NCBI GenBank assembly: GCA_963205315.1
Contig: CAUJIO010000067.1
Span: 1 to 46,248, forward strand
DNA length: 46,248 nt
Reading direction: 5' to 3'
From: Pseudomonadota bacterium
Lineage (GTDB): Bacteria; Pseudomonadota; Alphaproteobacteria; Rhizobiales; Aestuariivirgaceae
Shown here: piece by piece, positions 1-19,475 of the stretch
How the letters are laid out: each line of letters starts with the position of its first letter
Position numbering within the stretch: position 1 is the stretch's first letter
Translations under genes and position numbers: made by a program
Notes under the pieces: generated by a model
Databases searched by the model: none
What the model saw: the letters and a program-made list of their open reading frames with translations, nothing else
What the model was told of the DNA's origin: nothing

Positions 1-776
1 TCACGCCAGACAGATCGTGGAACACGAGCAAACTCCTCCATGATCCGATAGTAGTCGTAGCTTCTCTCGGGGTTGACGATATGACCTTGGAGGTCGCGCA
101 TAATGTTTGATAGGTCGAACGCATCAAAGTCCTGCACGAAAGCACGCAACTTTTCGATCGATCCAGGCTCCGGCATGGCCTTTTCAGATAGGAACGCGAC
201 CATAATGTCGGGCTCCTCGACGACCACGCCAGCCTCCCGAAGTTGTGGCAGAACTGATTCTCGGTACTCGAAATACAGACGTATGTCGTCTGGCACGCGT
301 AACTTGTCCACGATGCCAAGGTAGTCATGCGCGGCCACAATATGAATGAAGCCCGCTGTGGCCGACACGTGGAATTTGGTTCCGCGGCATTCCTCAGGCA
401 GCGACCGTCCGGGGAGGAATACGACGATCTTTATGATATCCTTGAGGTCGGCCCCTTTCATCGCAATTTTATGGCCCTGCCCGTTCGTGAGACGGATCTC
501 CTCGTTCTCGGCCAAGTACCGCAATGATGCCTTGATCTGATCCGTCGCCTTCCGGAGCACCTTCCCTCGGAACCATCGACGCTCTGCTTCCGGGTCCGAC
601 GTCTCCTCTGTTCGTTCCTTGAGCTGGAAAACAAAGGCCAACGAGCCGATTTTGACTATCCCGTCTGCCAACTCGACCTGCTGCTTTGGACGAGGGAAGA
701 ACCGCGTCTCAGAGAAGGTAAATTCCCTCCAGAACGTGGTAGCGTTGAGCTGGGCGGTGAATTCTTCGAGCGTCAT
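1..776 (-). CDS. hypothetical protein, PD-(D/E)XK nuclease-like candidate (partial, 3' end off the window)
   Basis: An uninterrupted reading frame begins at an ATG at 776 and continues for at least 258 codons off the left edge, so the C-terminus is unseen. The protein starts MTLEEFTAQLN. Around residues 35-55 it has E-L-A-D, about nine residues, then F-V-F-Q-L-K-E-R. That spacing resembles the acidic and (E/Q)xK strands of the PD-(D/E)XK nuclease fold. A helix with W-F and K-V follows, as in many restriction-like proteins. No family is recognised with certainty and nuclease activity is inference only. No clear ribosome-binding site is seen. It lies beside the tRNA-Arg gene and the candidate element, is AT-richer than the core genes, and is probably accessory or island DNA. 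Confidence 0.65.
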   Translation of the reverse strand, partial: MTLEEFTAQLNATTFWREFTFSETRFFPRPKQQVELADGIVKIGSLAFVFQLKERTEETSDPEAERRWFRGKVLRKATDQIKASLRYLAENEEIRLTNGQGHKIAMKGADLKDIIKIVVFLPGRSLPEECRGTKFHVSATAGFIHIVAAHDYLGIVDKLRVPDDIRLYFEYRESVLPQLREAGVVVEEPDIMVAFLSEKAMPEPGSIEKLRAFVQDFDAFDLSNIMRDLQGHIVNPERSYDYYRIMEEFARVPRSVWR

Positions 777-887: not shown

Positions 888-964
888 TGGCCTCCCGGAA
901 GGGATTCGAACCCCTGACCCCAGGTTTAGGAAACCTGTGCTCTATCCTGCTGAGCTACCGGGAC
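888..964 (-). tRNA. tRNA-Arg (anticodon CCT)
   Basis: The minus strand folds as a full cloverleaf: acceptor GTCCCGG, D stem GCTC/GAGC, anticodon stem CAGGT/ACCTG around loop TTCCTAA (anticodon CCT, reading AGG), T stem AGGGG/CCCTT around TTCGAAT, and an encoded CCA at 890-888. The first acceptor pair is a G-G mismatch (G1 against G72); the other six acceptor pairs are intact. The T stem holds one G-U pair. The 5' half, from the anticodon stem outward, is duplicated at 2228-2273, so the gene looks like the reconstructed product of an integration event. It may or may not still be charged normally. Confidence 0.93.
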
Positions 965-967
965 GTG
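922..967. repeat. 46-bp direct repeat, copy A (attachment-site candidate inside tRNA-Arg)
   Basis: This segment covers the anticodon stem-loop through the 5' end of the tRNA plus three upstream bases. It is identical over all 46 bp to 2228-2273. The bases on both outer sides differ at once, giving sharp ends as expected of an att core. Its right side leads into the candidate element and its left side continues into the intact tRNA 3' half. Confidence 0.85.
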
Positions 968-1168
968 TTTATTTTCAATGGGTTGCGAATGCACTCCACT
1001 GACATTTTGCTCTTGGAAGAGCACAGGTGCTTTTTAGCGAAGGTAGCGTAGGGCGCAAGATAGCATTTTGAAGGGCGTGGATGAACTGAAAAGGGGGCGC
1101 TAGCGGTAGTTCGGCTTTCATCTTAGACAACAATCTGTTAGTGATTGCCCTAGCGGCAGGAGTAAGAC

Positions 1169-1657
1169 ATGAGTGGCGTAACGACCTTAACTTTCGGACA
1201 GCTACTTTTGATTGCTCTTGGCCCAGCGGCTCTAACTGCTTGTGTGGCACTTTTTGCGCCATTCCTGTTGGAGAAAAGGAAACAGGAAGCTGAGCGAAAA
1301 AGGAAGCGGGCGGACAAACTCGAAGAGTTCATAGATGTACTTTATCAGCACGAACATTGGCTGGACGAAAAGAAAAGTGTCCGAGTGTTCGGAGAGAAAA
1401 CCGTATTGGGGGTCACTCCCCTCTCAAAGATTCAAGCAATCGCCAGCATCTATTTTAGCCAATTCAAGGCTGGCGTAGAGAACGTTGCAAAGCACGCTCA
1501 AGGATACGAGTTGTGGATGTTAGAAGCAGGTAAGAAGCGTTTGAGTGGCGAGGCGGATTATACGGCAGGATTCTCAGGAGCATACGCGCCGTATCACTCC
1601 AGCCTATCTGAACTTCTTAAATCAATCCGAGAGCACGCACAAAAGGAGTTTAAGTAG
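1169..1657 (+). CDS. hypothetical membrane-anchored protein, 162 aa
   Basis: No family is recognised. Residues about 8-34 form one strong hydrophobic segment (LLLIALGPAALTACVALFAP). A very basic, probably coiled-coil stretch follows (residues about 35-50, rich in R, K and E), then a soluble C-terminal part of about 110 residues. The likely topology is a single N-terminal anchor with a cytoplasmic domain. The start is supported by AGGAG eight bases before ATG. It is the only convincing gene inside the candidate tRNA-Arg element, so it may be its cargo. Small anchored proteins of this shape occur in phage-defence and toxin modules, but nothing here proves such a role. Confidence 0.7.
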   Translation: MSGVTTLTFGQLLLIALGPAALTACVALFAPFLLEKRKQEAERKRKRADKLEEFIDVLYQHEHWLDEKKSVRVFGEKTVLGVTPLSKIQAIASIYFSQFKAGVENVAKHAQGYELWMLEAGKKRLSGEADYTAGFSGAYAPYHSSLSELLKSIREHAQKEFK

Positions 1658-2118
1658 CTTGTATTCAACGTGCTCTTTTGAGAGGGCAAGGACTTTCACC
1701 TTGCATAGGCAATAGTCGGACTATCCACCGAGACACTGCACAGTCCGAGTTGCCTCGTATCAGGATTTACTCCTTTCACTTTCCTCTGCGCGACGAGTTT
1801 CCATCCCGTCTTTTTCCTCCAACAGTAGTGTTTATCTTTCTAGAATGAATGAGGGTTATAAAGCCTCCACTACCTTGCGGGTCATATTCCGCCACCTCTC
1901 AAAAGAACACGCTATGTGATGTGCTTGTGGGGAGCGTTCGGATTCACATGAAGGGCGCAACCTCCAACTTTCCTCGACTTATTGTACTTGCGAGGTTCAT
2001 CGCTTCGATGTCCTGTAAATCCCATTCCCCCAAAAACACACCACGTATCCTAGTAAAACATTCCTAGAAATTTGTGCAACAACATCCTGTGCATTTGCTC
2101 TTTTTTGCTCCGAAATGA
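1658..2118. other. gene-poor, AT-rich stretch of the candidate element
   Basis: No convincing gene is seen. An open frame at 1849-2067 has no ribosome-binding site and an implausible composition. A 7-bp inverted repeat (TCGGACT near 1716 and AGTCCGA near 1747) could fold as a hairpin. The stretch is probably non-coding or decayed DNA. Confidence 0.5.
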
Positions 2119-2217
2119 CGTGCGCTAGCATGTTACCGTATGCGCTGTATGTGCACCGACTTTCTAACATTTCAAGAACTTAGGGTGCGGTATGCGCTGC
2201 ATGTAACCGTATGCGCA
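2119..2217. repeat. iterated arm-like repeats beside attachment copy B
   Basis: Two well-matched units of about 20 bp occur at 2138-2158 (GTATGCGCTGTATGTGCACC) and 2190-2209 (GTATGCGCTGCATGTAACCG). A more diverged unit lies at 2119-2138 and a truncated one at 2209-2216. The octamer GTATGCGC occurs three times (2138, 2190, 2209). Iterated short repeats within about 100 bp of an att core are what arm-type binding sites of tyrosine integrases look like. The assignment is inferred from position and pattern. Confidence 0.55.
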
Positions 2218-2227
2218 GGTGCTTGGA

Positions 2228-2273
2228 AGGTTTAGGAAACCTGTGCTCTATCCTGCTGAGCTACCGGGACGTG
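2228..2273. repeat. 46-bp direct repeat, copy B (truncated tRNA-Arg 5' half)
   Basis: Identical to 922-967. On the minus strand it reads as tRNA-Arg from its 5' end through the anticodon loop and most of the anticodon stem, then stops matching a tRNA, so it is a non-functional fragment. It lies immediately downstream of the carD terminator and probably marks the ancestral chromosomal position of the tRNA 5' end. Confidence 0.85.
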
Positions 2274-2282
2274 CGCTTGCGC

Positions 2283-2312
2283 CTTATAGATCGGAAGCGG
2301 CGGAAAAGGAAA
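2283..2312 (-). promoter_or_regulatory. possible ancestral tRNA-Arg promoter at copy B
   Basis: On the minus strand a TATAAG box (2288-2283) lies 12 bases upstream of the first tRNA base in copy B, a spacing that suits a tRNA promoter. The -35 side is poor (TTTCCT about 18 bases upstream) and overlaps the carD terminator. If active it would now transcribe only a tRNA fragment. Confidence 0.3.
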
Positions 2313-2337
2313 GGCCCGGCGCGCGGGCCGGGCCTTT
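2310..2337 (-). terminator. rho-independent terminator after carD
   Basis: A perfect 11-bp G+C-rich stem (AAAGGCCCGGC / GCCGGGCCTTT) with a short loop is followed on the minus strand by TTTCCTTTT. It begins 23 bases past the carD stop codon. Confidence 0.8.
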
Positions 2338-2359: not shown

Positions 2360-3259
2360 TTATGCGGCTTCCTCGGCCGGGAGGTCGTCCTCGGCCTTGT
2401 CGCCGGCGGCGGGTGCGCGCTTGGCGTTCTTGGCGAGGTAGTCCTCGAGCTCCTTGATCGCCTGATCGTCATCGATCTTCTTCACCGCGGCGATTTCGCG
2501 TGCCATGCGGTCCAGCGCCTGCTCGAAGAGCTGGCGTTCGGAATAGGACTGCTCGGGCTGACGCTCTGACCGGTAAAGATCGCGCACGACCTCGGCCACG
2601 GCCATGATGTCACCGGAGTTGATCTTGGCATCGTATTCCTGGGCACGCCTGGACCACATCGTACGCTTGATGCGGGCGCGGCCCTTCAGCGTCTTCAGGG
2701 CGCCTTCGATCTGGGTCTTGTCGGAGAGACGGCGCATGCCCTTCTGCTCGGCGCGGCCGGTCGGAACCTTGAGGCGCAGCTTTTCCTTCTCGAAGTCCAC
2801 GATGTAGAGTTCGAGCTTGGCGCCTGCGATTTCCTGTTCCTCGATCTGGATGATCTTGCCGACGCCGTGGGCGGGATAGACCACCAGTTCGCCGACCTTG
2901 AACACCAGCTTCTTGGCGGCGGGCGTGCCGACGACGGGGCCGGACATGGCCGGCCTGGCGGCTGGCGGCGGCATGACCATGCGCTGCGGCGCCACCGGCG
3001 CGGCGGCCTTTGCTTCAGGCGCGGGCTTGGCAGCCTCCGGCTTGGAGGAAACGGGCTTGGCGGAAACGGGCTTGGCGGCAGCAACCGGCTTGGCGGCGGC
3101 CGGCTTGGCCTGCGCCTTCGATACGGTCTTGGCGGACGGCTTGGCGGCCACAGCAGGCTTCGCCTTGGCAACGCTGGCTGTCTTTTTCGGAACCGACTTG
3201 GTCTTGGCCTTTGCTGCGGGCTTCTTGGTGGCTGCTGTCTTCGTCTTGGCTTTTGTCAT
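2360..3259 (-). CDS. carD: CarD family transcriptional regulator with long Lys/Ala/Pro-rich N-terminal tail
   Basis: CarD/CdnL proteins bind the RNA polymerase beta subunit and stabilise open promoter complexes, especially at rRNA and housekeeping promoters. Residues about 118-280 are the CarD domain: an RNAP-interaction part (KVGELVVYPAHGVGKI) followed by the helical DNA-binding part (MWSRRAQEYDAKINSGD). Residues 1-115 form a low-complexity tail of repeated AKP/AAK units resembling histone H1-like tails. The C-terminus is short and acidic. The start at 3259 is chosen because GAAGGA lies just upstream and the domain architecture fits; an in-frame extension to 3325 is judged untranslated. It is the last gene of a minus-strand run (helicase, S4 protein, fdxA, carD). 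Confidence 0.92.
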   Translation of the reverse strand: MTKAKTKTAATKKPAAKAKTKSVPKKTASVAKAKPAVAAKPSAKTVSKAQAKPAAAKPVAAAKPVSAKPVSSKPEAAKPAPEAKAAAPVAPQRMVMPPPAARPAMSGPVVGTPAAKKLVFKVGELVVYPAHGVGKIIQIEEQEIAGAKLELYIVDFEKEKLRLKVPTGRAEQKGMRRLSDKTQIEGALKTLKGRARIKRTMWSRRAQEYDAKINSGDIMAVAEVVRDLYRSERQPEQSYSERQLFEQALDRMAREIAAVKKIDDDQAIKELEDYLAKNAKRAPAAGDKAEDDLPAEEAA

Positions 3260-4429: not shown

Positions 4430-7400
4430 GCTTTTCCTTCAGCGCACCGAGAATGGCAAAAGGAGAATCGGGGTCCATCGGCTTTTCGGGGCGCGGCTTG
4501 CGCTCCTCAAAACGCGGCTTGTCGAAGGACTTCTTCTCGAAGCGGGACTTATTGTCACGCTGGGGGCCACGGTGGCTGTCGCGGTCCTGGCCCTCGCCGC
4601 GGGGCTTGCGGTCTTCGCGGGGGCGATTGCCGCCGGGCTGCTGACCTTCGGGCCGGGCCTCGCTCCGCGGCCGGCTGTCGCGGCGGGGGCGGAAGTCGCG
4701 CTTCTCATTCTGTCTCTCGCCGGCGGGCTTGGCATCGGCGGGACTGGCTTCCGCGGCACCCTCGCCGGTTTCGGCAGGCGTGTCTCCCGCTGCCGCAGCG
4801 CGGCGCGGGGGTCCCCGGCGGTGATGCTCGCGGGCGCGCTCCGGGCGATGGCGGAAGGGACCGGTGTCTTTCGGCCACCAGACTTCGATCTCCACCTCTT
4901 CCATCGGGACTTCGGGAGCAGGCGGGGGTGCCGTGACCTCCGAGGCCGTTTCTGCAGGTGCCTCGGCTGGGGTTTCAGCAGGTGCTTCAGCCGCAGGGGT
5001 TTCAGGCAATGCCGGGGCTTCGGCAGATGTGGCGACCGACGTTGGTTCGACTTCTGCGGCTTCGGCAACCGGCCTGGATGCCGCTTCTGCCACCGGCGGA
5101 ACGTCGGTTGGCGCGGACGCTGCAGCTGCTTCGGGTGCGGCGGCCGGGGCCGGTGTGGCCAGCGGGCGCTTCACCAGTTTCTTCTGCATGCGGAAGTCGA
5201 GGCTCCTGATGATCCCCAGGAAATCCTCGCCAGAGCAGCCCACCAGCGACATCATGTCGGCCACCACCATGAATCCGCCGCCTTCCACCGAGCCCGCCGG
5301 GCGCGGCTCATCGGGGAAGCGCGGGCGCCAGAAGACGCGGTCGCGGATCATGTCGGCCAGGCGTTCCAGCATGTCGATGCGGACGACGCGGCTGCCGCAG
5401 ATGCGGTAGCCGCAGACACCGTAGAAACCCTTGGGCGTCGTGCGATCAAAGGGCGCGGACGTCAGGCCCTGGCCGGGAGCTTGCGGCAGGTTTGCAGGAT
5501 CGACTTTGCCGTCCTTCTGCATCTGCAGCGCCCAGAGCAGGAGACGGAGTTCGGTGGGGGCCGGCTTCAGCAGTGCCGGAACATACAGGTTGAAGGCGCC
5601 GAAGCGGGCGCCGAAATTCCTGAGCTTGGCGCGGTCGTCCTGCGACAGGGCTTTGACTTCCTCGTTCACCTCGTTGCGCGGCAGAACGCCCAAGGTTTCG
5701 ACGAGGCGGAAGGCGATGCCGCGGGCAATCCCTTCGAGGCCTTCGCCTTCTTCCAGCTTGATCAACGGTTCGAGGACAGCCCCAATATGGCGGTCGATGA
5801 ATTTCTGCAGGCGGGCCTGAACCTCTTCGCGGTCGCTGCCGGAAGGCTGGTCACCGGCCAGAACAGTGACGCGGGGCTTCAAGAGACTGGCGCCGGGTTC
5901 GAGTTTGCCGACCGCGGAATGGTTCCAGATGATCTGGCCGTCGCGGGTGAGCTTGAGGGCGGTGTCGGAGGAGGCGGCAACGGCCTTGGCCCTCGCGGTG
6001 ATCTCGGCGGCTACCGCCGACAGGGCTGCCGCTTTCAGCGCGCGGGCCTCAGCACCTTCCGCCGTTCCATCCGGCACGAACACAAAACCGTTGATCCGGC
6101 CCACATATTCGCCCTCGACATGGATGGCGCCGTCTTCCTCAACACTCGACATCAATTCTTCCTTCTGGGCCAGGCGCTTCATCAGCACGCTGGTACGGCG
6201 ATCGATAAAACGCTGTGTCAGCCTCTCATGCAAGGCATCCGACAACTTGTCCTCTATCTCTCTCGCGTAGGATTGCCAATAGAGAGGTGCTTTGAGCCAG
6301 TCGGCACGGTTAGCGACAAAGGTCCAGGTGCGGATGTGGCTGATGCGGTTCGACAGGGTATCGAGGTCGCCTTGCGTGTTTTCGCAGAATTTCAGCTGAC
6401 GGACGAACCAGTCCTCGTCGATGAAGCCCGTGCCGGTCTGCAGGTAGTGATAGATCTTTGAAACGATCGAGGCATGCTCGGAATTCGAGATGTTGCGATA
6501 GTCGGGGATCTGGCAGACCTCCCACAGGCGTTCGACGTCGGAGCACGTGGCGGCAAGATCGCGGGTCTCCGGGTCGCGGGCCAGGGATTCAAGTGCCAGC
6601 AGATCGGCATTGGGTTGGGCGCGGGTAAGGCCTTGCACATGCGGCAATGCGTTCAGCGACATTCTCAGCCGCTCGAGCGAGGCGAAATCGAGATCGCGGT
6701 TCCGCCATTGCAACATGCGGACGCTGTCGAAGTTGTGGCTTTCGAGACGCTCGACGGTTTCCTGATCGAAGGGATCGGCCTCGCCGGTGACACCGAAAGT
6801 CCCGTCATTCATGTAGCGGCCGGCGCGGCCCGCAACCTGGCCCAGTTCGGACGGATTCAGCTGGCGGTACTGGAAGCCGTCGAACTTGCGGGTCGAGGCG
6901 AAGGCGACATGGTCGACATCCATGTTCAGGCCCATGCCGATGGCGTCGGTCGCGACGATATAGTCGACATCGCCGGACTGATAGAGAGCGATCTGGGCAT
7001 TGCGGGTGCGGGGGCTCAAGGCACCCAGCACGACGGCGGCGCCGCCACTCTGACGGCGGATCAATTCGGCGGTGGCGTAGACCATGTCAGCCGAGAAAGC
7101 GACGACGGCCGAGCGGCGGGGCAGGCGGGTGATCTTCTTCTGTCCGGCATATAGCAATTGCGAGAAGCGGGGCCGCGACACGAAATTGGTCTTCGGCAGC
7201 ATGCTTTCGAGGATCGGCCGCATGGTGGCCGCACCCAGCAGCATGGTCTCGTCGCGGCCACGGCGATTGAGCACCCTGTCGGTGAAGATGTGGCCGCGTT
7301 CGAAATCGGCGCAGAGTTGCACCTCGTCGATGGCGAGGAACGGCACTTCGATGTCGGAGGGCATGGCCTCGACGGTGCAGATCCAATAGCGGGCGTTGAC

Positions 7401-7607
7401 CGGAATGATCTTTTCTTCGCCGGTGACCAGCGCCACATTTGGATCGCCGGCCCTCAGTCTCACCCTGTCGTAGATCTCGCGCGCCAGCAGCCGCAAGGGC
7501 AAGCCAATCATGCCGCCGCCATGGCCCAGCATGCGCTCCACGGCGAGGTGGGTCTTGCCCGTATTGGTGGGACCCAGCACGGCGGTGACATTTTTTGCAG
7601 ACGGCAT
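4416..7607 (-). CDS. Suv3-like DEAD/DEAH-type RNA helicase with disordered C-terminal extension
   Basis: Superfamily 2 ATP-dependent helicase related to mitochondrial Suv3, the degradosome helicase. Walker A is GPTNTGKT near residues 12-19. The DEAD-box equivalent is DEVQ (AIDEVQL) near residue 94. Motif VI is present in GQVAGRAGRYMNDG, and Suv3-type C-terminal helical domains follow. Residues from about 815 to 1020 are a long Ala/Pro/Glu-rich then Arg-rich stretch of low complexity, ending in a short ordered-looking motif, PDSPFAILGALKEKLAGK. The Arg-rich part probably binds RNA. The likely role is RNA turnover or ribosome-associated RNA remodelling, inferred from the family. It is the first gene of the run leading to carD. 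Confidence 0.9.
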   Translation of the reverse strand: MPSAKNVTAVLGPTNTGKTHLAVERMLGHGGGMIGLPLRLLAREIYDRVRLRAGDPNVALVTGEEKIIPVNARYWICTVEAMPSDIEVPFLAIDEVQLCADFERGHIFTDRVLNRRGRDETMLLGAATMRPILESMLPKTNFVSRPRFSQLLYAGQKKITRLPRRSAVVAFSADMVYATAELIRRQSGGAAVVLGALSPRTRNAQIALYQSGDVDYIVATDAIGMGLNMDVDHVAFASTRKFDGFQYRQLNPSELGQVAGRAGRYMNDGTFGVTGEADPFDQETVERLESHNFDSVRMLQWRNRDLDFASLERLRMSLNALPHVQGLTRAQPNADLLALESLARDPETRDLAATCSDVERLWEVCQIPDYRNISNSEHASIVSKIYHYLQTGTGFIDEDWFVRQLKFCENTQGDLDTLSNRISHIRTWTFVANRADWLKAPLYWQSYAREIEDKLSDALHERLTQRFIDRRTSVLMKRLAQKEELMSSVEEDGAIHVEGEYVGRINGFVFVPDGTAEGAEARALKAAALSAVAAEITARAKAVAASSDTALKLTRDGQIIWNHSAVGKLEPGASLLKPRVTVLAGDQPSGSDREEVQARLQKFIDRHIGAVLEPLIKLEEGEGLEGIARGIAFRLVETLGVLPRNEVNEEVKALSQDDRAKLRNFGARFGAFNLYVPALLKPAPTELRLLLWALQMQKDGKVDPANLPQAPGQGLTSAPFDRTTPKGFYGVCGYRICGSRVVRIDMLERLADMIRDRVFWRPRFPDEPRPAGSVEGGGFMVVADMMSLVGCSGEDFLGIIRSLDFRMQKKLVKRPLATPAPAAAPEAAAASAPTDVPPVAEAASRPVAEAAEVEPTSVATSAEAPALPETPAAEAPAETPAEAPAETASEVTAPPPAPEVPMEEVEIEVWWPKDTGPFRHRPERAREHHRRGPPRRAAAAGDTPAETGEGAAEASPADAKPAGERQNEKRDFRPRRDSRPRSEARPEGQQPGGNRPREDRKPRGEGQDRDSHRGPQRDNKSRFEKKSFDKPRFEERKPRPEKPMDPDSPFAILGALKEKLAGK

Positions 7608-8134
7608 GAAAGAGCGGGGCGTCGAAAAACCTTTTGTTTCAATTGGGGCTGCGGGGCTGTCCGGTCAAGTTCTTTCGCCCCGTTCTGAGCCGCCGCGTTA
7701 GGAAATGGATTCAATCAGGAACGAAGTGAGCCCGAATCGCTGACTCGGCGCGATTCAGGATTTGTTCCCCAGCAATCGTGCGGTCTGGCCTTCAGGACAA
7801 CAGAAGGTGACCGTCATATGGTGATGGTCTGGCGGCCTTGCCGTTAACCTGTGATGGCAAGATGTTGTGGAAGTGTTGCGACGGCCAAGCCGACGGGGCC
7901 GCCGATCTTAACGAAGCGTTCCCCTTCCGGAACAGAGCAGGCCCGAATCGGCGAACCTGAGATTTTCCGGTTTTGTTCTCACAAGATGTGGGGGCAGGCT
8001 GCGGGTCGCACCACAAGCCGGGTTACAAGAGGCCGCCGTCCAGACGGAATTCGACTTCAAGGTGTTAACTGATCCGTGCCAAAATGGGACATGCGGGATT
8101 CTCATCGTTCCTGTCAGAAAGCAGACTCATTGGC
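7608..8134. other. 527-bp gap upstream of helicase and rpmB
   Basis: No convincing gene is seen. A weak minus-strand promoter for the helicase is possible: TTGACC (7668-7663), 17-bp spacer, CAATTG (7645-7640). An inverted repeat GAATCG/CGATTC occurs around 7734-7757. Short frames on both strands lack good starts. Confidence 0.45.
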
Positions 8135-8163
8135 TTGACCGCTGTGTGGTCTGCCACTATAGA
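8135..8163 (+). promoter_or_regulatory. sigma-70-type promoter of rpmB
   Basis: TTGACC (8135-8140), an exact 17-bp spacer, and TATAGA (8158-8163). The expected transcription start is near 8170, leaving a leader of about 50 bases before rpmB. Confidence 0.75.
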
Positions 8164-8222
8164 ACCGGCAACTGAGCCGGGGACCCTCGTTTCCGGCGGC
8201 AATCATTTGTGAGGTTATCACC

Positions 8223-8522
8223 ATGGCTCGCCGTTGTGAGTTGACGGGTAAGAATGCACAGGTTGGCAACAAGGTCAGCCATGCCAACAACAAGACGCGT
8301 ACCCGGTTCATGCCGAACCTGTGCGATGTCAGCCTGATGAGCGATGCGATGGGCCTGACCTATCGCCTGCGCATTTCGGCGATCGCGCTGAAGTCGGTTG
8401 AGCATGCCGGCGGTCTCGATGCGTTCCTGCTGAAGCAGAACAATGAGAGCCTGTCGGACAAGGCGCTGAAGCTGAAGCGTTCGATCGCCAAGAAGGTCGA
8501 AGCCCAGAAGGCCGCCGCCTGA
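8223..8522 (+). CDS. rpmB: 50S ribosomal protein L28
   Basis: Structural protein of the large ribosomal subunit. The start [20 protein letters not shown] and the block [12 protein letters not shown] are diagnostic for L28. At 99 residues it has the usual alphaproteobacterial length, longer than the enterobacterial form. GAGG lies about nine bases before ATG. It is transcribed alone between a strong promoter and a strong terminator. Confidence 0.98.
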
Positions 8523-8549
8523 CCGGGCACGGCGTTCTCCGAATTTGCA

Positions 8550-8580
8550 AAGCCGCTCCTTCCGGGGCGGCTTTTGTTTT
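8550..8580 (+). terminator. rho-independent terminator after rpmB
   Basis: A 10-bp stem (AAGCCGCTCC / GGGGCGGCTT, one G-T-type pair) with loop TTCC is followed by TTGTTTT. It lies 27 bases past the rpmB stop codon. Confidence 0.85.
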
Positions 8581-8591
8581 AAGGTCAGGCG

Positions 8592-9239
8592 ATGACCGCG
8601 AATGAAAAGCCAACGCCTCGTCCCGCTTCCGCGCCGCGCGATGGCTCGCCGCGCGTGCATGGAACGGCGCAATTGCGCAATGCGACTCTCGGGCGCTTCA
8701 CCGAACTGAAGGAACGCGTGCAGTTCTGCGATTCCACGCTTGGGGACTATTCCTATATCGAGCGGCATTCCGAGGTGATCTATAGCCGCATCGGGAAATT
8801 CTGCGCGATTGCTGCTGATGTGCGGATCAATGCGCTGCGCCATCCGATGGAGCGCATCAGCCAGCACAAGATGACCTATCGGCCCAATGAATATTTCGTT
8901 GGCGCCAAGCTCGACAAGACCTTCCGGGAAAGCCGTATTCAAGACGCCGTCGAGATCGGGCATGACGTGTGGATCGGCCATGGCGCCATCATTCTGCCGG
9001 GGGTGAAAATCGGTCACGGCGCGGTGGTGGCGGCAGGCGCGGTGGTCACGAAGGATGTCGCACCACATGCGGTGGCGGGCGGTATGCCCGCGGCATTCAT
9101 CAAGTGGCGGTTTGCGCCGGACATCAGTGCACGGATCATTTCACTCGGCTGGTGGGATTGGGAGCACGAGCGCCTGGCCAGAGCCGTGGATGACATGCGG
9201 GCTTTGAGCGTCGAGGCGTTTCTTGAGAAGTACGAATGA
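8592..9239 (+). CDS. hexapeptide-repeat acetyltransferase, phosphonate-metabolism type
   Basis: A left-handed beta-helix transferase of 215 residues. The repeats run from about residue 20 to 175, with the hallmark turn IGHDVWIGHGAIILPGVKIG and the block GAVVTKDVAPHAVAGGMPA. The segments GDYSYIERHSEVIYSRIGKF and WWDWEHERL match the transferase family usually found in phosphonate (phn) operons, whose substrate is not settled. No phn gene lies nearby, so it is an orphan member. AGGTCAGG precedes the ATG. It is convergent with the phytase-like gene. Confidence 0.85.
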   Translation: MTANEKPTPRPASAPRDGSPRVHGTAQLRNATLGRFTELKERVQFCDSTLGDYSYIERHSEVIYSRIGKFCAIAADVRINALRHPMERISQHKMTYRPNEYFVGAKLDKTFRESRIQDAVEIGHDVWIGHGAIILPGVKIGHGAVVAAGAVVTKDVAPHAVAGGMPAAFIKWRFAPDISARIISLGWWDWEHERLARAVDDMRALSVEAFLEKYE

Positions 9240-9251
9240 AGGATGCTTCGG

Positions 9252-10268
9252 CTACGGCTTGTAGGCGAACTGCAACAGCACTGTGCTCTGGATGTAGGTG
9301 TTGAAATTGTTGTCGGACAACAGGGTCACGCGGGTTTCGCCATCACGCTCGCAAAGTGCGATGCCTTCCATGTTGTCGATTGCGTAGATTGGCACACTGG
9401 CTTCGAGCAGGAGTTCGGGCTTCACCAGAGTTCCGGACTTGACGGATTTGGGATCGAAGCGCCGGATGGCCATGCCGGGCAGCGACGTCTTGGTGAGGCT
9501 GCGTTCCATCGTCAAGACGCTTCCATCCGGCAACACGGCGAGATCGGTGACGTTGTAAGTGCTGTAGCGCTCGATGGCGAACGCCGTGGTGCGGGTGCCG
9601 TTCCAGATCCAGGCGAGGCTGTTGCCATCGGCATTGCGCTGCCGCTCGGCGATGGCAATGAGATCGCCAGAGGGCAATTGGCCCAGTGACTCGATTTCGC
9701 CATTCCACGGACCTTCGTCAATCGCGTGCGGATAGGGGATTGGAACAAAAGGTGCAGAGAGGTTTTTGGCGGCGAGATCGTAGGTGCCGATACGCACCCG
9801 GCGTTCAAAGGCGACGGCGATCTGGCCCGACTGCAGCCTGGTGACCGCCTCGGCATCGGTCCAGACTTCGTTCTTCTGTATCTTGCCCGCGCTGTCGCGG
9901 ATCGGCAGCAGCGAGTGGGCATTCAGCCCCGTCAGTGTGGCGCCGTCATAGGTCAGCGTCGCGGTGAACCAGCGGCCCTGGTCGCTGATGGCCAACAGAT
10001 CTTCGCAATTGTTGCTGAGGACCAGGCCCGAGAGGCCGCCGAAACCGTCCGACGGACTGGTGAGCGTCAGCCCGCCGCGCCAGGTGAAGGCCCCGAACCC
10101 GATCGTCGAGGTGAAATTGTTGAACGTGGTGATTGGTGACGCTTCGACATAGAGCGGTCCAGTCTGGGCGGGAGTTCGCGTGCCCGAGAGATGCAGCAGT
10201 GCCAGTGCCGCCACGGCTGGCAGCCCGATTTTCCACCACTTGCCCCGGACAGGCGGTTTGCCGGTCAC
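9252..10268 (-). CDS. esterase-like / phytase-family beta-propeller protein
   Basis: A 338-residue exported or membrane-anchored protein. Residues about 13-34 are a hydrophobic signal segment ending near a short Thr/Pro stretch. The rest matches the esterase-like activity of phytase family (PF13449-type): [34 protein letters not shown], and DNMEGIALC near the end. These proteins are predicted propellers and few have a proven substrate. Its start overlaps the cobT stop by four bases, so it is co-translated with the cobaltochelatase genes, an association of unknown meaning. Confidence 0.8.
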
Positions 10269-12154
10269 GCCGTGGCGCGCTTCTTCGCTGGCTTGGCGGG
10301 TTGGCGGACCTGCTTCTTCTCTTTCTCGGCAAAGAGTTCGGCAAGCTTCTCGGTCATCGCGCCGCCCAGTTCCTCGGCATCGACGATTGTGACGGCGCGC
10401 TTGTAGTAGCGCGTCACGTCATGCCCAATGCCGATGGCGATCAGCTCGACCGGTGAGCGATTCTCGATGTCGACGATGATCTGACGCAGATGTTTCTCGA
10501 GATAGTTGCCGGAGTTGACCGACAGTGTCGAGTCATCGACCGGCGCACCATCCGAAATGACCATGAGTATGCGGCGCTGTTCCTGCCTGGCCAACAAACG
10601 GTTGTGCGCCCAGATCAGCGCCTCGCCGTCGATGTTCTCCTTCAGAAGGCCTTCGCGCATCATCAGGCCAAGATTGCGCCTGGCGCGGCGCCACGGCATG
10701 TCGGCCGACTTGTAGATGATGTGGCGGAGATCGTTGAGGCGGCCGGGGTTGACGGGCTTGTTTGTCGCCAGCCACTTCTCGCGCGACTGCCCGCCCTTCC
10801 AGGCCCGCGTGGTGAAGCCCAGGATCTCGACCTTGACACCGCAGCGTTCGAGCGTACGGGCGAGAATATCGGCGCAAGTTGCCGCGACTGTGATGGGGCG
10901 GCCACGCATCGAGCCGGAATTGTCGAGCAGCAACGTCACCACGGTATCGCGGAATTCCGTGTCCTGCTCCATCTTGAAGGAGAGCGGATGCATCGGATCG
11001 ATGACGACGCGCGTCAGCCGCGAGGCATCGAGCACGCCTTCCTCGAGGTCGAAATCCCACGAACGGTTCTGCTGGGCCATGAGACGGCGCTGCAAGCGGT
11101 TGGCAAGCCTGGCGACCACGCCCTGGAGATTGGAGAGCTGCTTGTCGAGATAGTTGCGGAGCCTCGTCAGCTCTTCGGCATCGCAGAGTTCCTCGGCCGA
11201 AATCTCTTCGTCGAACTGGTTGGTGAAGACCTTGTAGAAGTCCTCGTTCGACAACGAAGAGAAGGGCAGCTGCGGGCGCCAGGGTTCTTCGCCTTCGGAT
11301 TCCTCTTCGCCGGCTTCGTCGTCAGGCTGTTCCTCGACGTCCATCTGGCGGGCATCCATTTCGGCGGAGTCGGATTCGCCTTCGGCGTCCTGCATCTCCT
11401 CCATGGATTGCTGCGAGCTTTCCTGCTCCTGGCCTTCCGGGGTTTCCTGGCGTTCGCCGGAATCTTCTTCCGGCTCGTTGTCCTCGTCGCTCTCGTCCGC
11501 CTGGTCGGGATCGTCACCCAGCTCGTCGGCCATGTCGAGGGCCGCGATGATGTCGCGCGACATACGGGCGAAGGCGGCCTGATCGTGGATGTTTTCAGTC
11601 AGGTGCGCGAGCTGATCGGCAGCCTTCTCCTCGATCCACGACCGCCAGAGATCGACCATGGTGCGCGCGCCTTCGGGCGGCGGCGAACCGGTGAGCTTTT
11701 CGCGCACCATCAGGGCAACGGCCTCATCGAGCGGCGCATCCTGACGGTCGGTGTAGCGGGCGACATCTTTCTTGGCGTAGCGGTCGTCGAGCATCGCCGC
11801 GAGGTTGTTCTTCATGCCGGGCATGGCATTGGCGCCCAAGGCTTCGACGCGCGCCTCTTCCACCGCTTCGAACACTGCCCGCGCGTTCTTGCCCTGCGGC
11901 TGATAGTGCGCGTGCACCTTGTCATTGTGGTTGGCGACGCGCAGCGCAAATGCATCCGACAAGCCGCGGACGATGGCGACGTCGGAGGCCTTCAGTTCAT
12001 TGGCGATCTGCGGCAGCCTGGCGCGATTGCCGGAGAGAGCCGGTTGCTCGTTGCCGAAGACGACGGAGAGCTCCGGGTCTTCGGCAATGGTCTTCATCGC
12101 GACGGTGAGGACGCGCTTGAAGCCGGTCGACGGCGACTCCTTGTCAGTGGCCAC
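10265..12154 (-). CDS. cobT: cobaltochelatase subunit CobT
   Basis: With CobN and CobS it inserts cobalt into hydrogenobyrinic acid a,c-diamide in aerobic cobalamin synthesis; CobT is the VWA-domain partner of the CobS AAA ring. Features in order: an N-terminal helical part, a highly acidic linker at about residues 210-300, and a C-terminal VWA domain with the MIDAS motif [10 protein letters not shown] near residue 410. It starts with GTG at 12154, ten bases after the cobS stop. Length (629) is normal. No cobN is in the window. CobST-like pairs also occur without cobalamin synthesis, so cobalt use is inferred from the family. Confidence 0.95.
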
Positions 12155-12164
12155 CGTCTGTCAC

Positions 12165-13154
12165 TCAGGCAATGGCGATGTGGGCGGAAGATTCAGGCAG
12201 TTCCTCGCCGAAGCACCGCTGATAGAACTCGGCGACAATCGAGCGTTCCAGTTCATCGCACTTGTTGAGGAACGTGACGCGGAAGGCGAAGCCGACATCG
12301 CCGAAGATCTCGGCGTTCTGTGCCCAGGTGAGCACGGTGCGCGGGCTCATGACGGTGGACAGATCGCCCTGCATGAAGGCATTGCGCGTCAGATCGGCGA
12401 CACGGACCATATTGGAGATGATCTTGCGGCCCTTGTCGTTTTCGTAGGACTTCGACTTTGCCAGAACGATGCCGACTTCCTGCGCATGCGGCAGATAGTT
12501 GAGCGCCGTGACAATCGACCAACGGTCCATCTGCGCCTGATTGATCTGCTGGGTGCCGTGATAGAGGCCCGTGGTATCTCCGAGGCCGATGGTGTTGGCG
12601 GTGGAGAACAGGCGGAAGGCGGCATGCGGGCGGATGACCTTGGACTGGTCGAGCAGCGTCAGCTTGCCGGAGGATTCGAGAATGCGCTGGATGACGAACA
12701 TCACGTCCGGGCGGCCGGCATCATATTCGTCGAATACGAGCGCCACATTGTGCTGATAGGCCCAGGGCAGGATGCCTTCGCGGAATTCGGTGACCTGCTT
12801 GCCATCCTGCAGGACGATGGCATCCTTGCCGATCAGGTCGATGCGGCTGATGTGGCTGTCGAGATTGATGCGGATGCAAGGCCAGTTGAGGCGGGCGGCG
12901 ACCTGCTCGATGTGGGTCGACTTGCCGGTGCCGTGATAGCCGGTCACCATGACGCGGCGGTTGTAGGCAAACCCCGCGAGGATGGCCAAGGTGGTCTCGC
13001 GGTTGAACAGGTAGTCCGGGTCGAGATCCGGCACGTGCTCCGAGGTCTTGGAATAGGCGGGGACATCGAGGTTCGAATCGAAGCCGAAGAGCTGCTTCAC
13101 CGACACCTTGATGTCGGGCATGCCGTTCGTTTCCGCAGTGGCCTTTGCATTCAT
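12165..13154 (-). CDS. cobS: cobaltochelatase subunit CobS (AAA+ ATPase)
   Basis: ATPase subunit of the aerobic cobaltochelatase. Walker A is [13 protein letters not shown] near residues 74-82, and Walker B is [10 protein letters not shown] near residue 140. The N-terminal segment ([20 protein letters not shown]) is the conserved CobS-specific region. At 329 residues the length is standard. It lies 80 bp downstream of the J-domain gene on the same strand and ten bases ahead of cobT, so the three probably form an operon. Confidence 0.96.
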
Positions 13155-13234
13155 GTTATGAATTCTTCATGTTCCGGGGTTCGTCGGGGCGGGTTTTAGA
13201 CGGTCACGGCAGCCGGGGCAAGGCTCGCAAATGA

Positions 13235-13840
13235 CTAGCAGAACCCACTTGAACGCAGGTGGTCATAGGCCTGGATCACGGCTTTCAGCGTGTCTTCGTT
13301 GGCCCTGCTGCCGCCATTGGCATCCGGGTGAAGGCGTTTCACCAGCGTCTTGTACTGGGTTTTGACCTGATCCGGGGTGGCGCTGTCGTCCAGGCCCAGT
13401 GTTTGCAAGGCTTTCAGCTCGGTGGAGCGAAGCATGCGGCCCGAGGTATGGCGGCCTGGTTGCTTTTCCGCTGTGGAGTTGAGGCCAAAGGGATCCGAGC
13501 GCATCTGGGCAGCCTTGCGGCGCACGCTGGACGCTGTTGCCTGGGCATTCTGTCCGAGCTTCCAGGTGGGACGATGGCCGAGCCGTGCGTCCTTCTGGAA
13601 ATCCTGCATCTCGTCGTCCTTCATGCCGGCGAAATAGTTGTAGGTCTTGTTGTACTCCTGCACGTGTGCGGTGCAGTAGTTGAAGAACTTGCCTTCATGG
13701 CCACGGCCCATCGGCGCCTTGTGGCGTCCGGGGCGGGGACAATCTGGCCAATCGCATTGCGGAACCGTATCGGCAGCCTTCTTCTCGGCCCCGGGTTTCG
13801 TCACGCGGATCTTGTCGAAGTATTTTGAATCGAGTTTCAT
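13235..13840 (-). CDS. J-domain (DnaJ-like) protein with N-terminal Cys/His motif
   Basis: A 201-residue co-chaperone. The J domain is C-terminal (residues about 140-200) and carries the essential HPD in VKRLHPDANGGSR. The N-terminal part has C-x4-C and later Y-C-x2-H around residues 29-60, with a conserved aromatic stretch (YNKTYNYFAGM), possibly metal binding. This architecture is common in alphaproteobacteria beside cobS and bolA. It probably stimulates DnaK on an unknown client. It is divergent from bolA. Confidence 0.88.
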   Translation of the reverse strand: MKLDSKYFDKIRVTKPGAEKKAADTVPQCDWPDCPRPGRHKAPMGRGHEGKFFNYCTAHVQEYNKTYNYFAGMKDDEMQDFQKDARLGHRPTWKLGQNAQATASSVRRKAAQMRSDPFGLNSTAEKQPGRHTSGRMLRSTELKALQTLGLDDSATPDQVKTQYKTLVKRLHPDANGGSRANEDTLKAVIQAYDHLRSSGFC

Positions 13841-13901
13841 CGCGGGTGATTATGGTGGTAGTGGCCTCTGCAAGCAAGCCTTGCCATGAATGAGAGACAA
13901 G

Positions 13902-14186
13902 ATGACACCTGAGAGCGAATTAGGCCCGGTCGGCCAAACAATCTCCGCAAAGCTCCGGCAAAATCTCGCGCCGGCGGCGCTGGACGTGATCGATGAGTCG
14001 TACCAGCACGCTGGGCATTCAGGATCACGGCCCGATGGCGAAAGCCATTTCCGCATCAAGATCGTGGCCGAGGCCTTTCGTGGGAAATCGCGCGTCGAGC
14101 AGCATCGCATGGTGAATGCGGTGCTGGCGGAAGAACTGCGCGAACGGGTGCATGCACTGGCGATTCAATCCTCGGCGCCGGCGTGA
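13902..14186 (+). CDS. bolA: BolA family protein
   Basis: Small stress-morphogene protein that pairs with monothiol glutaredoxins to bind Fe-S clusters. The BolA fold is clear: SHFRIKIVAEAFRGKSRVEQHRMVNAVL with the invariant H near the C-terminal helix. Start at 13902 is preferred because GAGAGACAAG lies directly upstream; an ATG at 13890 in the same frame has no such site. Its 3' end overlaps the FAD-reductase gene end by 22 bp, tail to tail. A glutaredoxin gene exists in the window at 33.5 kb but is a dithiol type. Confidence 0.93.
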   Translation: MTPESELGPVGQTISAKLRQNLAPAALDVIDESYQHAGHSGSRPDGESHFRIKIVAEAFRGKSRVEQHRMVNAVLAEELRERVHALAIQSSAPA

Positions 14187-15268
14187 GGCGTGTCGCGGGG
14201 CTTTTCACCGCGGCGATGGAAATAGACGGTGTTGGCGAACCAGCGCATCGGCGGCGTGCCGATGATGAGGTCATAGAGCCAGTTCGGCGGACCGAAATCC
14301 ATGACGGTGCGCAACGCCAGCTTTTTTGCAAAGCCGGGGAGTTCCCGACGCAGTACAAGCTCGGGCGGCGGGCCGTTGCGCGTCAGGTGATCGGCGATGA
14401 GCTGTCCCGCACGGCGGCCATAGCGGAAGGCGAGGCGAATGCCACCTCCCGTCAAGGGCGAGACATGGCCTGCGGCATCACCAATCAGCAGCACCTTCTC
14501 GGCGGCGAAGGGATCGACAGGTCCGCCGCAGGGAATGAGGCCGGAACGGCGCTCCTTCACATCGGCGGATGAAAATCCGAAGAGGTGCTCGGTGTGCGAG
14601 AGGAATGCCCGCAGATCGGGCTTGACGCTGTCGTTGGTGGCAAGCCCGACCTGAAAGAAGCCGGGCGCCGGGGCCACCCAGGCGAGATAGCCGCGCGCCA
14701 GCCTGGTGTCGAGGAAGCAATGCAGGAGATCCGGATCGGCCTGCGGAAGTGCATGGTATTCCACTTCAAGACCGGTGAGGAAGCGGCTGTTGCGGCCAAG
14801 GCCGAAGAGCTTGGCCACGGTGGAGCGCGCGCCATCGGCGCCCACCAGATAGCGGGTCTGCAGATCGAACTGCGGCAAGTCGAGGCCGCCTTCCCCACGG
14901 CTTGCCTGTTCGAACTTCCGTCCACAGATGATTTCGGCGCCGGCGAGTCGCGCCTGATCGGCAAACCAGCGGATGAGACCCGCCGTATCGGTGGTGAGAA
15001 AGAAATAATCGCGGGATGACAGGTCGATGTGCCGCAATGACGGCGCGTAGAGCCTGACGCCATGGATGGCGCGCGAAAATTGTGGCGGCGTATCCACCTC
15101 GTCAGCTGCTTCCTTCACCAGAATTCCGGTGGTGTGGATGCGGGCACCGGGCTCATCCTTGGCTTCGATGACCACCGTCTTCAGCCCCCTGAGGGCGGCG
15201 GTGCGGGCGCAGATCAGGCCGGCGAAACTGGCGCCGACGATGACAAGATCAACCTGCCGCCTGGCCAT
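14165..15268 (-). CDS. FAD-dependent oxidoreductase, geranylgeranyl-reductase-like
   Basis: A 367-residue flavoprotein of the PHBH fold. Residues 6-20 form the dinucleotide-binding motif (LVIVGASFAGLICARTAA), residue 40 region supplies the ribose-binding acid, and the second FAD motif is LLIGDAAGHVSPLTGGGIRLA. The latter is the pattern of geranylgeranyl reductases and related monooxygenases. The substrate cannot be assigned. The GXSXXG-like position reads GASFAG instead of GAGPAG, a modest change. The gene overlaps the CorC-like gene by 20 bp and closes the aroK-aroB-corC run. Confidence 0.82.
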   Translation of the reverse strand: MARRQVDLVIVGASFAGLICARTAALRGLKTVVIEAKDEPGARIHTTGILVKEAADEVDTPPQFSRAIHGVRLYAPSLRHIDLSSRDYFFLTTDTAGLIRWFADQARLAGAEIICGRKFEQASRGEGGLDLPQFDLQTRYLVGADGARSTVAKLFGLGRNSRFLTGLEVEYHALPQADPDLLHCFLDTRLARGYLAWVAPAPGFFQVGLATNDSVKPDLRAFLSHTEHLFGFSSADVKERRSGLIPCGGPVDPFAAEKVLLIGDAAGHVSPLTGGGIRLAFRYGRRAGQLIADHLTRNGPPPELVLRRELPGFAKKLALRTVMDFGPPNWLYDLIIGTPPMRWFANTVYFHRRGEKPRDTPHAGAED

Positions 15269-16529
15269 CGGCTTCGCGTTTCAGCGGCGTCATGCGCAGG
15301 GCGGTCACCTGATGCTTGCGCTTCTTCAGGATTTCAAAGCGGAAGCCGTGGAAGCTGAAAGCCTGGCCGACATCCGGAATCATGCGAGCCTCGTGAATGA
15401 CCAGGCCGGCGATGGTGTTCGCTTCCTCATCGGGCAATTCCCAGTCGAATGCGCGGTTGAGATCGCGGATCGGCACGCTGCCATCGACGAGATAGGACCC
15501 ATCGGGCTTCGGCCGCGCGCCGATGCCCACGGCGTCGTGCTCGTCCTTGATGTCGCCAACGATCTCTTCGATGATGTCTTCGAGGGTGACCAGCCCCTGC
15601 ACCTCGCCGTATTCATCGACGACGATGGCGAAGTGGCTCTTGCGCCTGAGAAATGCGTTGAGCTGATCGGGAATGGCGCGGGTATCGGGCACGAACCACG
15701 GTGGAGTCAGGATATCTTCAATATCGACCTTGGCCGCGTCACCATTGTATTTTTGCAGGGCGGCGAAGAGATTCTTGGCATGAAGGACACCGATGATATT
15801 GTCGGGCGTATCCTTCCACACCGGAATACGGGTGTGACCGCTCTTCAGCACCTTGGCAACAATGTCCTTGGGGTCTTCGTCGCCGTCGATCATGGTCATC
15901 TTGGTGCGGTGAACCATGATGTCGGAGACCTCAAGCTCCTGCATGGCGAGAATGCCGCCCAGCATATCGCGGTCGTTTTTCACTACCGATCCTTCCTTGT
16001 GATGAAGGTCGATGGTTTCGCGCAATTCCTCATGCACGGTCGGCTGGTCGGCCGAGCGCCTGAGTCCCAGGGCATTGCGGGCGAGCAGATCGAGCAGGGC
16101 GGCGAGCGGCCCGGCCAGATGGCTGGTCAAAGCGGTGAATCGGGCCAGGAGCACCGCCACGCGTTCGGGATGAATTCTCGCATAGGCGCGCGGCATGGCG
16201 CTGCCGAACAGTGCGAAGAGCAAGACGATGGCGGCGCAGATGCCGGCGCCGGCGAGCGGCGTTGTCATCGCGCCTGCAATTGCGAACGCGCCGAGCATGC
16301 CGGCCAGCATGACAACAATCAGCTTTGAGATACGCAGGGCCGCATGAACGCGGTCTTCCTGAGACAAGAGTTCGAGCACCCGTGCCGCCCGCGTTACTCC
16401 CTTGCGCTCGAGTTCCACGAGCCTGCTGCGGGTCACATCGGTCAGTGCGGCGGCGGCAGCTGAGAGAGCAGACGAGAACAGCAGCAACAACAGGACCGCT
16501 GCCAGCGCCCATCCATGACTCCAGATCAT
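15249..16529 (-). CDS. CNNM/CorC-HlyC family CBS-domain membrane protein
   Basis: A 426-residue inner-membrane protein. Residues 1-~150 are a transmembrane DUF21/CNNM region. Two CBS motifs follow at about residues 195-315 (MVHRTKMTMIDGDEDPKD; HFAIVVDEYGEVQGLVTLEDI), and a C-terminal CorC_HlyC domain lies at about 335-420. CNNM/CorC proteins are linked to magnesium or cobalt efflux and some bind ATP through the CBS pair; the older hemolysin label is not supported. It starts in the ATGA overlap with aroB. Confidence 0.92.
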   Translation of the reverse strand: MIWSHGWALAAVLLLLLFSSALSAAAAALTDVTRSRLVELERKGVTRAARVLELLSQEDRVHAALRISKLIVVMLAGMLGAFAIAGAMTTPLAGAGICAAIVLLFALFGSAMPRAYARIHPERVAVLLARFTALTSHLAGPLAALLDLLARNALGLRRSADQPTVHEELRETIDLHHKEGSVVKNDRDMLGGILAMQELEVSDIMVHRTKMTMIDGDEDPKDIVAKVLKSGHTRIPVWKDTPDNIIGVLHAKNLFAALQKYNGDAAKVDIEDILTPPWFVPDTRAIPDQLNAFLRRKSHFAIVVDEYGEVQGLVTLEDIIEEIVGDIKDEHDAVGIGARPKPDGSYLVDGSVPIRDLNRAFDWELPDEEANTIAGLVIHEARMIPDVGQAFSFHGFRFEILKKRKHQVTALRMTPLKREADGQAAG

Positions 16530-18242: not shown

Positions 18243-18268
18243 TCACCAATCCCTGAACTTGGGCTCGG

Positions 18269-18297
18269 TTTCTATCGTGCATGGATTGCAACCGCAA
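18269..18297 (-). promoter_or_regulatory. possible aroK promoter
   Basis: On the minus strand TTGCGG (18297-18292), a 17-bp spacer and TAGAAA (18274-18269) lie about 27 bases before the aroK start. The match is moderate and the call rests on position and spacing. Confidence 0.3.
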
Positions 18298-18350
18298 AGG
18301 CTTTCCGAAGCAGGACTTAACCGCTACACTTCAACACCAATGGTGATGGA

Positions 18351-19422: not shown

Positions 19423-19475
19423 CTTTCGCGGCCTGGACAGCCAGTTTCCGCCCAACCCATGACGCTTGAGGCCCA

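What the first reader, a model, noticed from the sequence alone, without database searches (positions are those of the whole stretch)
888..2273. tRNA-Arg duplicated by its 5' half around a 1.3-kb insert
A perfect 46-bp direct repeat has one copy inside an intact tRNA-Arg(CCT) and a second as a truncated 5' half beside carD. Most tRNA-targeting elements duplicate the 3' half and restore the 3' end. Here the shared part runs from the anticodon stem to the 5' end and three bases beyond, so the insert would have to supply the tRNA 5' half and promoter. This is the reverse of the usual arrangement. The direct repeat and its ends are seen; the integration model is inference.
Basis: partly seen in the sequence, partly recalled or inferred. 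Interest (0 to 1): 0.7.

Follow-up and report, generated by a model that had tools for sequence, protein, structure and literature searches.

The report
Small insertion duplicating tRNA-Arg's front half
A 1.3-kb piece of foreign DNA appears to have entered a tRNA-arginine gene from its front end, leaving the old front half stranded beside the carD gene; insertions of this front-end type are an already described minority kind, and this one shows no integrase of its own.

Summary
Window 922-967 and 2228-2273 are identical over 46 of 46 bases. The first lies in an intact tRNA-Arg(CCT); the second is tRNA positions 1-43 plus three upstream bases, beside carD.

Relatives give the empty site: in 16 of 30 carD loci examined, all from one genus, an intact tRNA-Arg(CCT) lies directly beyond carD. 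The carD-side half is therefore native. The insert (968-2227) is in 1 of 37 genus genomes, this one.

The insert begins with TCAATGGGTTGCG ten bases beyond the tRNA 5' end. In phage contigs the same motif sits just beyond tRNA 3' ends (21 of 34 hits by eye; 1 hit for a reversed-motif control). A distant relative of the insert's ORF lies beside that motif at a tRNA-Arg 3' end.

Best reading: a small element without an integrase, or its remnant, entered at the anticodon loop and supplied a new 5' half. This arrangement is uncommon but known: 159 of 3919 islands in Islander, 9 of 88 in S. meliloti. Main rival: a larger element carrying a whole spare tRNA, as seen at this same gene in relative G015.

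The parts
888..964 (-). intact tRNA-Arg(CCT); 5' half presumably supplied by the insert; first base G and its acceptor partner (standard number 72) G, a mismatch
922..967 (-). direct repeat copy 1: tRNA positions 1-43 plus 3 upstream bases
926..932 (-). anticodon loop TTCCTAA, presumed 7-bp strand-exchange region (seen as the only shared stretch in the G015 element, inferred here)
   Evidence: inference
968..2227 (.). insert of 1260 bp, G+C 0.476 against 0.617 for window 2274-46248; in 1 of 37 genus genomes
975..987 (+). TCAATGGGTTGCG, attachment-site arm motif 10 nt beyond the tRNA 5' end
   Evidence: role inferred
1169..1657 (+). ORF of 162 aa, function unknown (possible membrane anchor, by eye); distant relatives beside a tRNA-Arg(TCT) in G038 and, in G357, about 2.8 kb from an integrase gene
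2138..2216 (+). three copies of GTATGCGC (2138, 2190, 2209), candidate integrase arm sites at the other end of the insert
   Evidence: role inferred
2228..2273 (-). direct repeat copy 2: native 5' half of the tRNA, displaced, still beside carD
2282..2289 (-). CTATAAGG, -10-like box upstream of the native 5' half, also at that place in relative G030
2313..2329 (-). terminator-like hairpin beyond carD
2360..3259 (-). carD-like gene, native neighbour (name from the finding and recalled; not tested against a family library)
3..776 (-). incomplete ORF left of the tRNA 3' end, accessory gene, 50% identical to a hypothetical protein on a Rhizobium plasmid; absent from the 36 other genus genomes

Best explanation
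A small integrative element, now without a recognisable integrase, integrated by tyrosine-recombinase strand exchange at the anticodon loop of tRNA-Arg(CCT). [quoted passage not shown] Integration therefore left the native 5' half, with its promoter, next to carD and joined the element's 5' half to the native 3' half. Shown: the repeat, the empty site in relatives, the insert's absence from the other genus genomes held, and the motif at the insert end. Inferred: the recombination event, the motif's role, an integrase acting in trans or since lost, and which half came from where. Not shown: that the restored tRNA is transcribed.
For: Perfect 46-bp repeat that covers the anticodon loop. In 16 of 30 carD loci, all from one genus, an intact tRNA-Arg(CCT) on the same strand lies 88-150 bp from the end of the CarD core, against 1396 bp here. 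The carD-side fragment and carD align to G030 in a single BLAST match. The insert is in 1 of 37 genus genomes and has lower G+C. TCAATGGGTT reads outward just beyond tRNA 3' ends in phage contigs: 34 stretches against 1 for the reversed motif, 21 of the 34 within 2-8 nt of a CCA end (counted by eye). Here it starts 46 nt from the middle of the anticodon on the 5' side; at the tRNA-Arg 3' end of G038 it starts 48 nt away. G038 carries a relative of the insert ORF beside that motif. Comparable 5'-side cases elsewhere: a viral contig with integrase, tRNA 5' half and motif, and a Bradyrhizobium locus with a decayed 5' half about 450 bp away. No displaced 3' half was found in this genome.
Against: No integrase in the insert: no integrase match in Pfam for 7 ORFs, no significant match in 46 stop-to-stop frames. 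No sigma-70-like promoter by the simple scan, although that scan also misses the native one. The left flank is itself private to this genome, so the true left end of the foreign DNA is unknown. The intact tRNA has G opposite G at its first pair, which needs a mutation or a second event. In phage contigs the relaxed 5'-side pattern is not enriched over a reversed control (12 against 15 stretches). Motif-to-anticodon distance is not constant among 3'-side cases (longer in the two tRNA-Ser rows, shorter in the tRNA-Gly row).
Confidence: 0.62

Rival explanations
1. Whole-tRNA replacement (as in tRNA-dependent lysogeny): a larger element, running from 2227 leftward past the contig end, cut the native tRNA at the anticodon loop without rebuilding it and carries its own complete tRNA-Arg(CCT). 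The 46-bp repeat is then just tRNA against tRNA fragment.
For: This is seen at the same tRNA in relative G015: native 5' half 57802-57840 and native 3' half 42495-42539, sharing only the 7-bp loop, about 15.3 kb apart, with an integrase-like gene and a complete tRNA inside. The left flank 1-887 is absent from the other 36 genomes and its gene is of an accessory type.
Against: No displaced native 3' half in the genome by three searches, though it is a draft in 112 contigs. The arm motif abuts the tRNA 5' end, where a promoter would be expected. The two 5' halves are identical over 46 nt, whereas in G015 fragment and element tRNA differ at 2 of 39 positions.
Confidence: 0.2
2. Two events: an ordinary 3'-side island (left flank, bringing the 3' half with G72) and, separately, the 5'-side insert.
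For: G1 with G72 in the intact tRNA, where relatives of that tRNA type have G1-C72 or C1-G72; accessory left flank.
Against: No displaced 3' half found, down to an 18-base pattern with up to 2 mismatches. A single C72G mutation explains the mismatch as well.
Confidence: 0.1
3. Partial duplication of the tRNA by ordinary recombination, transposition or misassembly, with no site-specific integration.
For: No integrase found in the insert; the contig ends 887 bp away.
Against: The repeat ends in the anticodon stem, a usual integrase boundary. The insert is foreign to the other genus genomes held and ends in the arm motif.
Confidence: 0.08

Closest known systems
tDNA islands with a 5' fragment (Islander; S. 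meliloti phage-related sequences)
   Same: intact tRNA plus displaced 5' part in the same orientation with foreign DNA between
   Different: those counted by Islander are at least 2 kb and carry an integrase; this insert is 1.26 kb with none found
archaeal pTN3-type integration
   Same: attachment site is the tRNA 5' half (41 bp shared), tRNA separated from its original promoter
   Different: there the integrase gene itself is split and its promoter drives the tRNA; no integrase here
tRNA-dependent lysogeny (phage Fionnbharth and others, PMC10865867)
   Same: disruption of a tRNA at a short core by an element that bears a tRNA; fits relative G015
   Different: there the two sites share about 10 bp and the phage brings a whole tRNA; here 46 bp are shared and no native 3' half is found
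ordinary 3'-half tRNA islands
   Same: same outward motif TCAATGGGTT at a similar distance from the anticodon
   Different: mirror image: the motif and the insert lie beyond the 5' end

Membership tests
tDNA island with 5' fragment | intact tRNA and displaced 5' fragment, same orientation, fragment upstream | tested here: met
tDNA island with 5' fragment | uninterrupted site in relatives | tested here: met
   16 of 30 carD loci
tDNA island with 5' fragment | fragment reaches an accepted crossover region (anticodon loop) | tested here: met
   the cut position itself is inferred from G015
tDNA island with 5' fragment | integrase gene on board | tested here: not met
   7 insert ORFs without an integrase match in Pfam and no significant match in 46 frames against 5 integrases; described as an integrase-less derivative that works like this class, not as an autonomous island
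tDNA island with 5' fragment | excision and circular form | not testable with these tools
   no reads available
tRNA-dependent lysogeny | native tRNA split and not rebuilt, native 3' half at the far end | tested here: not met
   no 3' half in this draft genome; met in relative G015
tRNA-dependent lysogeny | short common core (about 10 bp) | tested here: inconclusive
   the 46-bp identity could be core or plain tRNA homology
pTN3-type suicidal integration | integrase gene split by the attachment site | tested here: not met
   no integrase found in the insert

The most novel reading that the evidence does not exclude
The insert belongs to a scattered set of very small, integrase-less elements that mirror the ordinary 3'-side islands: they keep the same arm motif but carry the tRNA 5' half, are moved by integrases of other elements, and repeatedly replace a tRNA's promoter and 5' half.
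Probability: 0.18. Interest if true: 0.55.

Novelty: new member of a known kind. Interest (0 to 1): 0.33.

Why it matters
It is a clean, relative-supported case of the minority 5'-side integration, in which a tRNA gene is cut off from its native promoter. The sister genome G015 shows the whole-tRNA replacement strategy at the very same gene, so one attachment site can be used to compare the two solutions. The shared motif suggests that one integrase type can use either half of the tRNA, which is testable.

Tried and rejected
Plain chance repeat: rejected.

Finding the element elsewhere by its ORF: none in genome contigs, viral contigs (with the G038 relative as query), plasmids or phages. Relatives at 35-36% identity in 2 genomes besides its own, of 397 of the order. 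Three weak hits besides its own in 385 of the class, not used.

Function of the insert ORF and of the left ORF: nothing convincing in Pfam, PHROGs or PADLOC.

Finding the native left neighbour: the epimerase/aminotransferase block next to the tRNA in G030 lies in this genome on contig C102 beside a kinase-like gene, with no tRNA match there, so it gave no far junction. In one search I translated the aminotransferase query out of frame; that row is void, the epimerase row stands.

A general 5'-side class by motif: a loose pattern gave 10 viral hits, none with a tRNA. A strict pattern gave 17 genome loci; ARAGORN called a tRNA at 16 of 17, L123 being masked. By my own rough estimate tens of such hits could arise by chance, so the count is no evidence. 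The gaps cluster at 9-13 nt in 14 of 17, or 13 of 16 after dropping L120, a near copy of L125. I searched 15 of these 17 loci, with 4 to 40 kb held for each, for a displaced 5' half and found one in two (G432, G424); G431 holds several tRNA copies. An integrase was found by phmmer in G424 (4 kb from the motif), G425 (280 bp) and viral L136. That screen used 5 integrases as queries and is not sensitive: in L177 it found none, but Pfam shows one there, about 5.6 kb away on the 3' side of the tRNA, so other loci may hold unseen ones. The relaxed viral pattern is not enriched over its control: 12 against 15 stretches, both sets with many near copies; tRNA-associated distinct cases are about 3 (L136, L171, L177) against 1.

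A trans-acting element in this genome: of 5 places with TCAATGGGTTR, only the window and a tRNA-Ser(CGA) locus are near a tRNA, and at the latter the motif points the other way.

Papers opened but not used for a claim: PMC9897764 and PMC8074189 (passages).

Full report
Observation. The intact tRNA-Arg(CCT) is at 888-964 on the minus strand, the only tRNA called in the window. The 46-bp direct repeat is exact: 922-967 and 2228-2273. Counted along the tRNA it is positions 1-43 plus three bases upstream. Position 43 is the fourth base of the 3' strand of the anticodon stem, so the whole anticodon loop (TTCCTAA, positions 33-39) is inside the repeat. In the whole-genome BLAST search the only full-length near-identical match is this tRNA and the only other near-identical match is this fragment (5 of 9 matches of this genome listed, the rest weaker than E about 0.009).

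Which copy is native. I collected the carD region from relatives (which returned 30 loci of 58 matching genomes; all 30 are of the window's genus, the window included) and measured the distance from the tRNA 5' end to the end of the conserved CarD core. In 16 of the 30, an intact tRNA-Arg(CCT) lies 88-150 bp away on the same strand. In the window it is 1396 bp away and in G015 272 bp. Of the other 12, 11 have no such tRNA in the stretch held and one (G017) has it 873 bp away. The window's carD-side fragment, its flank and carD align to the uninterrupted tRNA-carD junction of G030 in one BLAST match, 78% identical, including a CTATAAGG box. The half beside carD is therefore the native 5' half with its native upstream region.

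The insert. 968-2227 was found in 1 of 37 genus genomes, the window's own. Its G+C is 0.476 against 0.617 for 2274-46248. It holds one credible ORF, 1169-1657 (162 aa), without a convincing family match. Six further small frames have no Pfam match, and 46 stop-to-stop frames have no significant match to five integrases. In 397 genomes of the order, two besides the window's own hold a relative of the ORF at 35-36% identity. In G357 it lies about 2.8 kb from a tyrosine-integrase gene. In G038 it starts 70-120 bp, depending on the start codon, beyond the 3' end of a tRNA-Arg(TCT).

The end of the insert. Both G038 and the window show TCAATGGGTTRCG between the tRNA and this ORF, beyond the tRNA 3' end in G038 and beyond the 5' end in the window. 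A scan of viral contigs for the motif 10-35 nt after the T-loop consensus gave 34 stretches, and the reversed motif gave 1. Reading the 34 by eye, 21 have the motif 2-8 nt after a CCA end, 6 are at a tRNA end at another distance, and 7 have no tRNA; some are near copies of each other. I take the motif to be an arm of attachment sites used by a group of tyrosine integrases; that role is inferred. It starts 46 nt from the middle of the anticodon in the window and 48 nt in G038. In one search the tRNA-Pro and tRNA-Arg rows are close to this, the two tRNA-Ser rows longer, the tRNA-Gly row shorter. At the other end of the insert GTATGCGC occurs three times within 100 bases of the fragment, as arm sites often do (recalled).

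Other cases. A strict pattern for the motif beyond a tRNA 5' end gave 17 loci in genome contigs. The count alone is compatible with chance. The distances cluster at 9-13 nt in 14 of 17 (P about 2e-4 after allowing for the choice of range, on 16 loci). A few loci are telling singly. In viral contig L136 an integrase gene is followed by the 5' half of a tRNA (Val-like by eye) and then the motif. In Bradyrhizobium erythrophlei (G432) a decayed 5' half lies about 450 bp from the intact tRNA. A Micavibrio locus (G424) has displaced 5' halves, an integrase with an arm-binding domain and repeated GGCGAC words near both ends, but part of the record reads N. In the other loci searched I found no displaced half. 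My integrase screen was insensitive. In phage contigs a relaxed pattern showed no enrichment over its control.

The rival at the same gene. In relative G015 a segment of about 15.3 kb (C43:42540-57801) separates the native 5' half (57802-57840) from the native 3' half (42495-42539). The two halves share only the 7-bp loop, and the segment carries its own complete tRNA-Arg(CCT), with its 5' end about 100 bp from the native 5' half. Next to the 3' half lies an integrase-like gene whose Pfam integrase and arm-binding scores are just under the curated cut-offs (26.2 of 27.1 and 26.5 of 27 bits; used as a query it also matches the Micavibrio integrase). That is the arrangement described as tRNA-dependent lysogeny (PMC10865867; I saw the abstract, passages and the Discussion), whose authors ask how common it is outside actinobacteriophages. 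The window could be the same, with its far end off the contig: the left flank 1-887 is also private to this genome among the 37, and its gene is 50% identical to one on a Rhizobium conjugative plasmid. Against this, no native 3' half exists in the assembly by three searches, the motif sits at the tRNA 5' end, and the halves match over 46 nt, whereas those of G015 differ at 2 of 39.

An unexplained detail. The intact tRNA has G opposite G at its first acceptor pair (1-72 in standard numbering). Relatives of the same tRNA type have G1-C72, or C1-G72 in G015, G031 and G035. This may be a simple C72G change, a step between the two paired forms, or the result of halves from two sources. No sigma-70-like promoter was found around it, though the scan is crude. 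tRNA-Arg(UCU) can usually read AGG too (recalled, and not looked for here), so the gene may tolerate weak expression.

Known or new. Islander counts 159 of 3919 islands with a 5' fragment (PMC4383910; parts 1 and 2 of 3 of the text read). In S. [quoted passage not shown] passages). In archaea pTN3-like integrases use the 5' half, and the review says this is seldom met in bacteria (PMC8371274, passages; PMC5495485, passages). Williams 2002 is known to me only through that review. So this is a further case of a known minority arrangement, in a very small form without a recognisable integrase. Interest 0.33.

Noticed in passing
L064 (G015 C43:38000-57999) 4541-19802; L043: About 15.3-kb element with an integrase-like gene that splits tRNA-Arg(CCT) at the 7-bp anticodon loop and carries a complete replacement tRNA: looks like tRNA-dependent integration outside the actinobacteria.
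   Followed up: partly
L007-L012, L015, L018-L020, L024 against L005, L006, L016, L017: Two quite different tRNA-Arg(CCT) sequences (about 78-82% identical) occupy the same place beside carD in different species of one genus.
   Followed up: no
window 888-964; L042, L043, L045: First acceptor pair of tRNA-Arg(CCT) is G-C, C-G or, in the window, mismatched G-G among close relatives.
   Followed up: partly
L154 1409-1511: The TCAATGGGTT motif lies 2-3 nt after a tRNA-Ser(CGA) 3' end in the same genome, but pointing toward the tRNA.
   Followed up: no
window 3-776: Incomplete unknown gene, 50% identical to a Rhizobium beringeri plasmid protein near a restriction endonuclease and Ku genes; 33-35% identical proteins on Vibrio and Synechocystis plasmids.
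   Followed up: partly
L142 2900-7700: Bradyrhizobium sp. LTSP885 shows three copies of a tRNA-Arg(TCG)-like sequence in about 4.7 kb, one with a broken 5' half.
   Followed up: no
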